Assembly: GCA_017555905.1 (NCBI GenBank)
Contig: JAFZFP010000003.1
Location: forward strand, 19,442-83,441
Direction of reading: 5' to 3'
DNA: 64,000 bases
DNA from: Alistipes sp.
GTDB taxonomy: Bacteria; Bacteroidota; Bacteroidia; Bacteroidales; Rikenellaceae
Shown: one piece after another, positions 15,091 through 49,400 of the stretch
Layout: each line of letters begins with the position of its first letter
How positions within the stretch are numbered: the stretch's first letter is position 1
The notes under the pieces: model-generated
Database searches by the model: none
Seen by the model: only the letters and a program-made list of their open reading frames with translations
Told to the model about the DNA's origin: nothing
Position numbers and translations under genes: made by a program

Positions 15091-16899
15091 TTATTCAGCG
15101 TCGAGTCCGAGTTTCTCGATCATATCGAGGAGCTTGTCGTTCTTCGTCACCAGGTGTCGGAGTCTATCCTCAAGGGTGATTGGACGAGCCACACGTATCT
15201 GCTCGTTCACTGTCACGGCAATCTCGATAAGGCCCTTCACACCACTAGCCTGGGCTATCAACTTCTGCAAGTCGCTCTTTTCGTGGTATATCTCATCCCT
15301 TGCACCCTCCGAGGCTACGGTTACCATAATGGTGTTACCCTCGATAGTCATACTATCGAATATCACGCCGAGACGCTTGCGATATTTTGTCACCCTCTCG
15401 ACTATCTTGTCTCGGGCGGTGGATAGTTTCTCCTCGCAGTATGGGTCTATGTGCGACGTTATTCGTGCCTCCAAGGCCTCCTGCTCACTCATTATCTCCG
15501 AAGCACTCTTTGCCTCGCTACGTAGTAGGCCCGTGAGGGATGGTAGGCGAGGTGAGCGACCTGTGCGAACGGCTCTTTGGGGCTCTTCAGGTTGTGGCTG
15601 TACGCTTGGTGCTACACTCTCTGGTTGTGTGGTCTCAAGAGGTCGTGTCACCGTCACTACGGCCTGGGGTGCAGGAGCCTGCGGTTGTGGCTGTGCGCTC
15701 TGAGGTACCGGGATTGTGGTATCCAAGGGTGGAAGTTGTATCGAGGTGTCGAAACTTGTCTCCACTATACCCTCGATGAACTCCACGAGGTTATCTATCC
15801 CCTCATTTTTTTTTTGACCGAGACCCGCAATCTTCATAAGTCCCAGTTCCACAAGCAGTCGTTGATTCGAAGACTGTCGTATCTTGCTATCTGCCTCCGT
15901 AAGTAGCGATATTGCAGTGAAGAGGAATTGCTCGCTACAACGTGTCGCCTGCTCCTTGTAACGCTCCACAAGGGTTCCCGTGAACTCTATGAGCGATACG
16001 GCAGGACCCTTAGCCATAAGAAGGTCTCTGAAGTGGGCGTTAAGACCCGAGATGAATACCTGTGGTGAGAAGCCTCGTGAAAGCACCTCGTCGAAGCGCA
16101 GAAGGGTCTCCACGTAGTTTCCTGCCAAGAGCAACTCCGTAACCGAGAAGTAGGTGTCGTAGTCGAGTACGTTGAGTGTTGAGGCTACATCCTTGTAGTT
16201 GAGGTTGTTACCGCAGAACGATACCGCCTTGTCGAACATCGACAGTGCATCGCGCATACCGCCATCGGCCTTGTGTGCGATAAGGTTGAGGGCTTCGTCA
16301 TCGGCCGTAACACCCTCCTTGTTTGCGATATAGCGGAGGTACTCCACGCCATCCTCGACCTTTATGCGGTTGAAGTCGTAGATCTGGCAACGTGAGAGGA
16401 TTGTAGGGATAATCTTATGTTTCTCGGTTGTCGCAAGGATAAATATGGCGTGACGTGGTGGCTCCTCAAGGGTTTTGAGGAAGGCGTTGAATGCCGCTGC
16501 TGAGAGCATATGCACCTCGTCGATAACGAATACCGAGTAGCTGCCCTGCTGTGGGATGATGCGCACCTGCTCTATGAGGTTGCGGATATCATCCACCGAG
16601 TTGTTTGACGCGGCATCGAGTTCGTGGACATTGAGCGAACGGCCCTCATTGAACGAGCGACACGACTCACACTCGTTGCAAGCCTCGCCACCCTGAGGGT
16701 TGAGGCAGTTGATAGCCTTAGCGAAGATACGGGCGCAGGTTGTCTTGCCCACACCGCGAGGTCCGCAGAAGAGGTATGCGTGTGCCAACTGGCCACGCTC
16801 AATGGCATTCTTCAATGTCGAAGTAATGTGTCGTTGTCCTACAACCGACGCAAAGGTTGCGGGACGGTACTTGCGTGCTGAAACAATAAAATTATCCAT
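15091..16899 (-). CDS. dnaX: DNA polymerase III subunit tau (and predicted gamma form)
   Basis: 602-residue clamp-loader subunit. AAA+ domain with Walker A GPRGVGKTT (46-54), zinc module C65, C74, C77, C80, Walker B DEVHM, sensor 1 and SRC arginine finger. Domain III ends near residue 360. A Pro/Gln/Ala-rich linker (PQSAQPQPQAPAPQ, about 393-445) leads to a tau-type C-terminal region. At codons 362-365 the mRNA holds ten consecutive A (plus strand T-run 15806-15815) within CAA AAA AAA AAT GAG. Slipping into the -1 frame, or one extra A, gives AAA TGA at once, so a gamma-like protein of 365 residues with exactly domains I-III is predicted. A -7 box lies only 8 nt upstream of the ATG. Confidence 0.96.
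   Translation of the reverse strand: MDNFIVSARKYRPATFASVVGQRHITSTLKNAIERGQLAHAYLFCGPRGVGKTTCARIFAKAINCLNPQGGEACNECESCRSFNEGRSLNVHELDAASNNSVDDIRNLIEQVRIIPQQGSYSVFVIDEVHMLSAAAFNAFLKTLEEPPRHAIFILATTEKHKIIPTILSRCQIYDFNRIKVEDGVEYLRYIANKEGVTADDEALNLIAHKADGGMRDALSMFDKAVSFCGNNLNYKDVASTLNVLDYDTYFSVTELLLAGNYVETLLRFDEVLSRGFSPQVFISGLNAHFRDLLMAKGPAVSLIEFTGTLVERYKEQATRCSEQFLFTAISLLTEADSKIRQSSNQRLLVELGLMKIAGLGQKKNEGIDNLVEFIEGIVETSFDTSIQLPPLDTTIPVPQSAQPQPQAPAPQAVVTVTRPLETTQPESVAPSVQPQPEEPQRAVRTGRSPRLPSLTGLLRSEAKSASEIMSEQEALEARITSHIDPYCEEKLSTARDKIVERVTKYRKRLGVIFDSMTIEGNTIMVTVASEGARDEIYHEKSDLQKLIAQASGVKGLIEIAVTVNEQIRVARPITLEDRLRHLVTKNDKLLDMIEKLGLDAE
15806..15815 (-). promoter_or_regulatory. Predicted slippage / programmed frameshift site in dnaX
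   Basis: Ten consecutive A in the dnaX mRNA sense (T on the plus strand). In frame 0 they read CAA AAA AAA AAT; in the -1 frame the next codon after AAA is TGA. Homopolymer A runs at this place drive transcriptional slippage or ribosomal frameshifting in dnaX of other bacteria such as Thermus and E. coli. Confidence 0.75.
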
Positions 16900-46470: not shown

Positions 46471-49400
46471 ATGAAGAAATTTACAGAGTATAAGGGTCTT
46501 GACTTGGCAGGTGTTGCTGACGAGGTGTTGGCACGCTGGACTGAGGATGATACCTTTCACAAGAGCATAACAACACGCGAGGGCCATCCTACCTTCGTGT
46601 TCTATGAGGGACCACCTTCAGCAAATGGTACTCCAGGTATTCACCACGTTATGGCACGTACTATCAAGGATGTATTCTGCCGTTATAAGACTCAGCAGGG
46701 TTATCTCGTTCATCGTAAGGCGGGTTGGGATACTCACGGCCTTCCTGTGGAGTTGGGCGTAGAGAAGAAGCTCGGCATCACCAAGGAGGATATCGGCAAG
46801 AAGATTACCATCGAGGAGTATAACAAGGCTTGCCGTGAGGCAGTTATGGAGTTCACCGACATTTGGGAGGACTTGACTCACCGTATGGGTTACTGGGTAA
46901 ATATGGACGATCCATATATCACCTACGACAATAAGTTTATCGAGACCTTGTGGTGGTTGTTGAAGCAACTCTACGAGAAGGGTCTCCTCTATAAGGGTTA
47001 CACTATTCAGCCATACTCGCCAGCCGCAGGTACTGGTCTTTCGACTCACGAGTTGAACCAGCCTGGTTGCTACCGCGACGTTAAGGATACCACTTGTACG
47101 GCGCAGTTCCGCATCGTAGATCCTAAGGCTGAGATGGAGGGTTGGGGTACTCCAGTCTTCTTGGCTTGGACAACAACCCCTTGGACTTTGCCTTCAAATA
47201 CCGCGCTCTGCGTTGGTCCTAAGATCGACTACGTAGCAGTTCGCACTTACAACCCATACGATGGTCAGAAGATTACCGCTGTAGTGGCTGAGCCATTGCT
47301 CTACTCTATCTTCAACAAGAAGGGTGAGGAGTTGGCTCTTGACAGCTATAAGGCTGGCGACAAGGTTATCCCATTCGAGGTAGTAGGCAAGTGGCGTGGT
47401 ACAGAGCTCGAGGGTATGCACTATGAGCAGCTTATCCCTTGGGTAAAGCCTGTTGAGTGCGACGAGGCTGGCAACTGGGTTGAGGCCTCTGCAAAGGGCT
47501 TCCGCGTAATTCTTGGTGACTACGTAACCATCGAGGATGGTACAGGTATCGTACATATCGCTCCTACCTTTGGTGCTGATGATGCCTTCGTAGCGCGTCA
47601 GGCTGGCATCCCTTCGCTCTTTATGATTAACAAGCGTGGTGAGACTCGCCCTATGGTGGATTTCACTGGTAAGTTCTACCTCACCGAGGAACTCGACGAG
47701 CGCTTTGTTAAGGAGTGTGTTGAGGAGTCGTATAAGGAGTATGAGGGTCGCTTCGTGAAGAATGCTTACGACCCACAGTTCACCGTGGATGGTCGTTACG
47801 ACGACAAGGCTGCTGCAGCGGCTGAGACTCTCGACGTATATATCTCTATCCGCCTCAAGGAGATTGGTAAGGTATTCAAGATTGAGAAGCATACCCACAA
47901 CTATCCACACTGCTGGCGTACAGATAAGCCAGTGTTGTACTACCCATTGGACTCTTGGTTTATTCGCACCACGGCGCTTCGTGAGCGTATGATGGAACTC
48001 AACAAGACCATCTACTGGAAGCCAGAGTCTACAGGTACTGGCCGTTTCGGTAAGTGGCTTGAGAATATCAACGACTGGAACCTCTCACGTTCACGCTTCT
48101 GGGGCACTCCGCTCCCAATCTGGGCTACTGAGGATCGTTCAGAGCTCAAGTGTATCGGCTCTATCGAGGAGCTTATCGCCGAGATTGAGAAGGCTGTGGC
48201 TGCAGGTGTGATGACCGAGAACCCATATAAGAACTTCAAGGTTGGCGATATGTCGAAGGAGAACTACTCGACAGAGAATATCGACCTACACCGCCCATAC
48301 GTAGACAACATTGTCTTGGTATCATCTAAGGGTGAGCCTATGCGTCGTGAGCCAGACTTGATCGACGTATGGTTCGACTCTGGTGCTATGCCTTACGCTC
48401 AGGTACACTACCCATTCGAGGCTAAGGAGGGATTCGACCAGATTTACCCTGCAGACTTCATTGCTGAGGGTGTTGATCAGACCCGTGGTTGGTTCTACAC
48501 ATTGCACGCTATTGCAACTATGTTGTTCGACTCTGTAGCATTCAAGAATATCATATCTAACGGTTTGGTATTGGATAAGAATGGTAACAAGATGTCGAAG
48601 CGTTTGGGTAATGCCGTAGATCCATTCGAGGTATTGAGAAAGTATGGTGCTGACGCTACACGTTGGTATATGATCTCTAACTCGCAGCCTTGGGATAACC
48701 TTAAGTTTGACGTTGATGGTGTGGATGAGTGCCGTCGTAAGTTCTTCGGTACACTTTACAATACCTACTCATTCTTTGCGCTCTACGCAAATATCGACGG
48801 TTTCACAGGCCAGGAGGCTGAGGTTGCTATTGAGAAGCGCCCAGAGATCGACCGCTGGATCTTGTCGGAGTTGAACTCTCTTATCAAGGATGTCACAGCA
48901 TCGTTGGAGGAGTACGACCCAACCCCTGCGGCACGTCGTATCGACCAGTTTGTTAATGAGAACCTCTCTAACTGGTACGTGCGCCTCAACCGTAAGCGTT
49001 TCTGGGGTGGTGAACTTACCGAGGATAAGCTCTCAGCATACCAGACATTGTACACCTGCTTGGAGACTGTCGTGATGTTGGCAGCACCTATCGCTCCATT
49101 TATCTCGGACCGCATCTTCTGCGACTTGAATGCTGTAAGCGGTCGCCACACCGAGTCAAGTGTTCACCTTGCGGAGTATCCTAAGTGTAATGAGTCACTC
49201 ATTGTCAAGGAGTTGGAGGATATGATGTCGTTGGCACAGCGCACTTCATCTATGGTATTGGCTTTGCGTCGTAAGGTTAATATCAAGGTGCGTCAGCCAT
49301 TGGCAAAGATTATCATCCCAGTCTTGGATAAGCAGATGGCTAAGCATATCGAGGCTGTACGTGCGTTGATTATGAACGAGGTAAATGTCAAGGATATCGA

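What the first reader, a model, noticed from the sequence alone, without database searches (positions are those of the whole stretch)
15806..15815. dnaX A10 run predicted to make a gamma-like clamp-loader subunit
The mRNA reads CAA AAA AAA AAT GAG. A -1 shift or one added A gives AAA TGA at once, ending the protein at 365 residues, right after clamp-loader domain III and before the Pro/Gln-rich linker. Homopolymer A runs in dnaX are known to cause slippage in Thermus and frameshifting in E. coli. The match of position, phase and immediate stop makes chance unlikely.
Basis: partly seen in the sequence, partly recalled or inferred. Interest (0 to 1): 0.72.

Follow-up and report, generated by a model that had tools for sequence, protein, structure and literature searches.

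The report
Slippery A-run yields short clamp-loader protein
A run of ten A's in this gut bacterium's dnaX gene very probably makes part of the messages slip out of frame, so that one gene yields both a long and a short clamp-loader protein; the mechanism is known from Thermus, and the sequence signs of it are found here in many members of the bacterium's phylum.

Summary
The A10 run is real: minus-strand dnaX, T10 at 15806-15815, codons CAA AAA AAA AAT GAG. One added A gives 365 aa, 40.6 kDa; full length is 602 aa, 66.7 kDa. The +1 frame closes too, three codons on, as in Thermus. A>=9 is kept in 80 of 86 examined family genes, found with a model that ends before the run, and in 29 of 29 examined of the genus. 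Both other frames close within nine codons in 134 of 137 distinct family genes; background 23-30% per frame. Outside the family, double closure becomes the rule, and two-ORF genes appear, only from 9-10 A's up. In 36 of 248 run-bearing rows tau lies in another frame, 30 at -1, 6 at +1. No SD-like or convincing stem-loop stimulator was found. Best reading: programmed gamma/tau production, mainly by RNA-polymerase slippage; -1 ribosomal frameshifting is not excluded. The kind is known (Thermus; two-ORF dnaX genes with ten A's, 2013); I found no printed survey of Rikenellaceae or Bacteroidota. No RNA or protein data were available.

The parts
15091..16899 (-). dnaX, tau reading frame (602 aa)
   Evidence: NCBIfam NF011531/PRK14971 match 1-600, 701 bits over cut-off 685
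15806..15815 (-). A10 slippery run (T10 on + strand), within codons 362-365
15803..15805 (-). TGA stop in the -1 frame, directly after the run (gamma end, 365 aa)
   Evidence: sequence; product lengths
15795..15797 (-). TAG stop in the +1 frame after ATG AGG GGA (367/368-aa products for A9/A12)
   Evidence: sequence; product lengths
15823..16194 (-). clamp-loader domain III (PF12169, residues 236-359)
15094..15804 (-). tau-only C-terminal part: Pro/Gln-rich linker and conserved C-terminal region
   Evidence: coding pattern of changes in relatives

Best explanation
Programmed production of a gamma-like DnaX from the tau gene. RNA polymerase slips on the A10 run and makes mRNAs with different numbers of A. 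A10 or A13 messages give tau (602-603 aa). A8, A9, A11 and A12 messages hit a stop at once in the -1 frame or three codons later in the +1 frame and give gamma-like proteins of 364-368 aa that hold domains I-III and lack the tau-only C-terminus. Shown here: anatomy, closure of both frames, conservation, length threshold, frame switching among relatives. Inferred: that slippage takes place, its level (by analogy with Thermus about half), and that gamma enters the clamp loader.
For: A>=9 kept in 80 of 86 family dnaX genes found with a domain model that ends before the run, and in 29 of 29 examined of the same genus, although AAG outnumbers AAA for Lys elsewhere in 142 such genes, 2436 to 1401. 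Rikenellaceae, 137 distinct tau-in-frame genes: -1 stop within 9 codons in 137, at once in 82; +1 stop within 9 in 134; same-phase background 23% and 30%. In 64 genes of other families: 64 and 55 of 64, against 48% and 37% in their own linkers. Threshold outside the family: both frames closed in 5 of 21 genes with A6-8, 12 of 19 with A9, 28 of 30 with A10, 15 of 15 with A11+; two-ORF genes 0 of 21, 3 of 22, 20 of 50, 8 of 23. Tau frame moved in both directions, -1 in 30 and +1 in 6 rows. L320 and L325, 99% identical N-terminal proteins in single-contig genomes, have A9 and A10 and tau in different frames, with a coding pattern of changes in the tau-only part. No strong stem-loop (mean z -0.58, n 139) and SD-like 4-mers in 8 of 155 rows. 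Published: Thermus dnaX slips at nine A's with stops in both other frames (passages of PMC5009743, PMC1088944).
Against: No RNA or protein evidence. Every A>=9 run also contains X_XXY_YYZ heptamers, so -1 ribosomal frameshifting could use the same site. The excess of -1 over +1 two-ORF rows (30 to 6) fits single-A insertion but also -1 frameshifting, and with A9 only 12 of 19 genes close the +1 frame. 21% of downstream stretches fold with z below -1.5, and no z control was made on other stretches. Six of 86 family genes lack the run; in the wider sets 38 of 68 order rows and 24 of 54 rows from other classes lack it, so it is not indispensable. In those sets any run from 60 nt before to 180 nt after the domain end was accepted, so some may be unrelated. 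Five of the 36 two-ORF rows are Rikenellaceae drafts where a homopolymer error is possible; one (L197) is cut by its contig end. Thermus efficiency need not hold for this RNA polymerase.
Confidence: 0.72

Rival explanations
1. -1 programmed ribosomal frameshifting (E. coli type, or ribosome sliding on poly-A) makes gamma from uniform A10 mRNA.
For: A_AAA_AAA and A_AAA_AAT heptamers lie in the run in frame; immediate -1 stop; 30 of 36 two-ORF rows need a -1 shift for tau; with A9 the +1 frame is closed in only 12 of 19.
Against: No convincing downstream structure and SD-like 4-mers in only 8 of 155 rows (window alone z -0.72). Closure of the +1 frame is not needed for -1 frameshifting yet is in 134 of 137 and 55 of 64. 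Six rows need +1. The base after the run varies (T 108, C 32, G 20 of 160 rows), unlike the E. coli AAG. In an E. coli cell-free system sliding gave little product at A9/A10 and robust product at A11 (passage of PMC4363877).
Confidence: 0.2
2. The run is not programmed; slippage is harmless noise and the nearby stops are a fail-safe that ends slipped products.
For: Close off-frame stops would also be selected as a safeguard; the run is absent in 6 of 86 family genes, so gamma seems dispensable in some lineages.
Against: A synonymous AAG would remove the hazard, yet the run is kept across genera. Two-ORF genes, where a frame change is the only way to tau, arise some 20 times by rough parsimony and show a coding pattern of changes in the tau-only part in the pairs compared; that is hard to rest on rare noise.
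Confidence: 0.07
3. Assembly or sequencing artefact in the homopolymer.
For: Window is from a draft of 86.85% completeness; homopolymers are error-prone.
Against: Exactly A10 in 60 of 78 named relatives; single-contig genomes in the wider sets carry such runs too (L325).
Confidence: 0.01

Closest known systems
Thermus thermophilus dnaX transcriptional slippage (A9; Larsen 2000, not held, cited in PMC1088944 and PMC5009743, passages seen)
   Same: Tau in one ORF, sense-strand A run of nine or more, stops close by in both other frames.
   Different: A10 not A9; [quoted passage not shown] slippage not measured here.
Two-ORF dnaX genes of the GeneTack study (PMC3711429, passages seen): 17 genes of 12 genera, nine with ten A's
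   Same: Ten-A run at the gamma/tau junction; predicted transcriptional slippage; relatives here (L073, L083, L080, L087 and 32 more rows) have this DNA layout.
   Different: The window gene is a single ORF, the reverse layout; [quoted passage not shown]
Escherichia coli dnaX -1 programmed ribosomal frameshift (A_AAA_AAG, SD, stem-loop; passages of PMC5009743 and PMC3711429)
   Same: Same outcome: gamma ends right after a Lys-Lys site in the -1 frame.
   Different: No AAG, no SD-like stimulator, no convincing stem-loop; +1 frame closed too.

Membership tests
Thermus-type dnaX slippage | sense-strand run of nine or more A in dnaX | tested here: met
   A10
Thermus-type dnaX slippage | tau encoded in a single ORF | tested here: met
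   602-aa ORF
Thermus-type dnaX slippage | stops near the run in both other frames | tested here: met
   0 codons (-1) and 3 codons (+1); 137 and 134 of 137 in the family
Thermus-type dnaX slippage | mRNAs of several run lengths | not testable with these tools
   no transcript data
Thermus-type dnaX slippage | gamma and tau made at about 1:1 | not testable with these tools
   no protein data
E. coli-type dnaX -1 frameshift | A_AAA_AAG heptamer | tested here: not met
   A_AAA_AAA / A_AAA_AAT instead
E. coli-type dnaX -1 frameshift | SD-like element upstream | tested here: not met
   147 of 155 family rows have none of four 4/5-mers within 20 nt; none seen in the window's own 20 nt (by eye)
E. 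coli-type dnaX -1 frameshift | downstream stem-loop | tested here: inconclusive
   window z -0.72; family mean z -0.58, 21% below -1.5, mean MFE -14.85 against -15.22 elsewhere in the genes
Two-ORF dnaX (GeneTack 2013) | DNA-level frame break between gamma and tau-only parts | tested here: not met
   window gene is one ORF; met in 36 of 248 run-bearing rows
Caulobacter-type gamma by proteolysis of tau | gamma arises by protease cleavage | not testable with these tools
   named from PMC5009743 passage

The most novel reading that the evidence does not exclude
In Bacteroidota the dnaX A-run is a very old (perhaps ancestral) polymerase-slippage device efficient enough that the genomic reading frame of the tau subunit has become nearly neutral: single-A indels flip the gene between 'tau in frame' and 'gamma in frame' repeatedly and in both directions, while both products go on being made.
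Probability: 0.55. Interest if true: 0.62.

Novelty: new member of a known kind. Interest (0 to 1): 0.5.

Why it matters
It extends a mechanism shown in Thermus, and predicted for some two-ORF genes, to a gut lineage in which most examined members carry its sequence signs. It makes the old question of whether a short clamp-loader subunit matters testable through natural gains, losses and frame flips. It also suggests (inference) that short 360-400-aa DnaX open frames in this phylum may belong to intact two-product genes.

Tried and rejected
Artefact: rejected on recurrence of the run in other assemblies. Chance: rejected on conservation and the resampling figure. Selection bias of the named loci: one of the six peptide patterns was QKKNEGID, which overlaps the run, and only the best 80 of 577 relatives were kept, so the conservation count rests on the TIGR02397 samples, whose model ends before it. 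Downstream stem-loop or SD: looked for, none convincing. Internal start at the ATG in the +1 frame: leads to a stop after three codons. Structure prediction of the domain boundary: tool switched off. Tree: a FastTree protein tree only, of 192 proteins, the family thinned to about a third but its run-less and frame-switched members kept by rule, so about 20 frame changes (30 label shuffles gave 27-32) is a rough parsimony count. The last line of the script failed and was redone; the figures quoted were printed before the failure.

Rows dropped: 26 of 116 family hits, 4 of 74 order hits and 55 of 146 phylum hits were not fetched. The family rows were taken mostly in list order, but four with short open frames were put in on purpose (G059, G068, G013, G044; the first two have under 60 nt after the match). 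The 24 rows beyond the class were hand-picked to spread over family codes and both open-frame lengths. 3 family, 2 named and 1 order rows with under 60 nt after the match were left out of the run counts; 3 of 251 run-bearing rows with 300 nt or more showed no C-terminal ORF of 100 codons and are outside the 248, though they were not removed from the closure counts. Named and family sets overlap in species (L076 and L201 are the same sequence at the site). The Rikenellaceae counts by run length are not de-duplicated; those are.

Full report
What is there. Codons 362-366 read CAA AAA AAA AAT GAG. Run lengths A8 and A11 end in TGA at once (364 and 365 aa), A9 and A12 end at TAG three codons later (367 and 368 aa), and of A7 to A14 only A7, A10 and A13 keep the tau frame. 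The Pfam domain III match ends at residue 359 and the dnaX N-terminal model match at 357, so the short product is the clamp-loader core. The window lies in an unnamed draft genome; that it is Rikenellaceae is taken from the titles of its nearest named relatives, Alistipes and Rikenellaceae MAGs.

More than chance. Given the protein, resampling synonymous codons with the usage of five ORFs (dnaX and four neighbours) yields A>=10 anywhere in the gene in 0.5% of 20,000 draws. It is the only single-base run of nine or more in the window; the assembly has three A>=10 sites and no open frame over 90 codons covers the other two. Of 23 distinct A>=9 sites in the assembly, one other lies inside an ORF, an A9 near the start of a RecD-like ORF; two more (L346, L350) lie at the very start of long open frames and were not resolved.

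Conservation. Of 80 named relatives, 79 keep A9-A12 at the same site (this set was fetched partly with a pattern overlapping the run). A sample chosen with a model that ends before the run (116 of 120 family genomes have dnaX; 90 examined, the window included) gives 80 of 86 genes with A>=9 besides the window, and 29 of 29 in the window's genus. The six exceptions lie in five genera. In other families of the order 30 of 68, in other orders of the class 35 of 36, and in other classes of the phylum 30 of 54 examined rows have such a run, sought from 60 nt before to 180 nt after the domain end.

Both frames are shut. In 137 distinct Rikenellaceae genes with tau in frame, the -1 frame stops within nine codons in 137 (at once in 82) and the +1 frame in 134; at the same codon phase elsewhere in the same genes the figures are 23% and 30%. 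In 64 genes of other families the counts are 64 and 55, against 48% and 37% further down their own linkers, and 38% and 29% after the domain in 58 genes with fewer than eight A's. Of seven run-less Rikenellaceae rows (six distinct; L076 and L201 are one), five (four distinct) have the -1 frame open for 25 or more codons, and in two of these (L195, L208) the +1 frame is open too; L179 and L227 are closed in both frames without a run. In the family nine combinations of stop triplets do the closing.

A length threshold. Outside the family, both frames are closed in 5 of 21 genes with A6-8, 12 of 19 with A9, 28 of 30 with A10 and 15 of 15 with A11 or more; two-ORF genes number 0 of 21, 3 of 22, 20 of 50 and 8 of 23. 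Nine is the length at which efficient slippage by bacterial RNA polymerase is reported (passages of PMC5009743). The run starts 2 to 128 nt after the domain end in the A>=9 rows.

Frame flips. In 36 of 248 run-bearing rows the tau-only ORF lies in another frame, -1 in 30 and +1 in 6, so that slippage or frameshifting is needed for tau. Among the named relatives L083 has A11 and L073 A12, with the short form now in frame. L320 (A9, tau at -1) and L325 (A10, tau in frame), from single-contig genomes, have 99% identical N-terminal proteins; they also differ in bases beside the run, and their tau-only parts differ at codon positions 1, 2, 3 by 26, 17 and 54 bases, a coding pattern. On a rough tree of 192 proteins (123 with a run) the frame state changes about 20 times. 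The five two-ORF Rikenellaceae rows are draft assemblies and may include errors.

How it works, and rivals. Closure of both frames, the threshold, flips in both directions, the variable base after the run and the lack of an SD or a convincing stem-loop (window z -0.72) favour RNA-polymerase slippage over -1 ribosomal frameshifting, which needs only the -1 stop. Ribosomal frameshifting is not excluded: the heptamers are there, the -1 bias of two-ORF rows fits it as well as single-A insertion, the +1 frame is closed in only 12 of 19 genes with A9, and 21% of downstream stretches fold with z below -1.5. Ribosome sliding on poly-A in an E. coli cell-free system was robust at A11 and slight at A9-A10 (passage of PMC4363877). 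That slippage happens in this organism, and how much, is inferred.

Compared with what is known. Thermus dnaX is the same kind: A9, tau in one ORF, stops in both other frames, about half the product short (passages). The GeneTack study found 17 two-ORF dnaX genes of 12 genera, nine with ten A's, and proposed transcriptional slippage; the passages I saw name only three Chlorobi among the species, and its supplement was not read. The 2016 review already notes that at about 50% efficiency one nucleotide can reverse the roles, with dnaX as the example. In the library searched (listings, 20 of 75 papers shown, passages of PMC5009743, PMC3711429, PMC1088944, PMC3017870, PMC4363877 and PMC12421855) I found no account of Rikenellaceae dnaX or of a Bacteroidota-wide survey; most subscription papers, and Larsen 2000, are not held. 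Hence: new member of a known kind, with a wide and well-marked distribution.

Noticed in passing
L341:1437-2858 (G000:C5, A9 at 48508-48516): A RecD-like helicase ORF (473 aa, named by eye from its sequence) carries an A9 run at about codon 22 (QKKI); besides dnaX it is the one A>=9 site found inside an ORF in the assembly, with two further sites unresolved.
   Followed up: partly
L118:1837-1847 (G000:C6:12336-12346): A11 just after the stop of a long ClpB-like ORF (named by eye), abutting a terminator-like hairpin with a T run.
   Followed up: no
L038, L071, L200, L235: Four contigs end within roughly 50 nt of the dnaX run or the domain III match end; run-length variation between strains could break assemblies there, or it is coincidence.
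   Followed up: no
window 15091-16899: NCBIfam holds short DnaX models (PRK14955, 397 positions; PRK14961, 363) among the matches; they may have been built on gamma-only ORFs of two-ORF genes.
   Followed up: no
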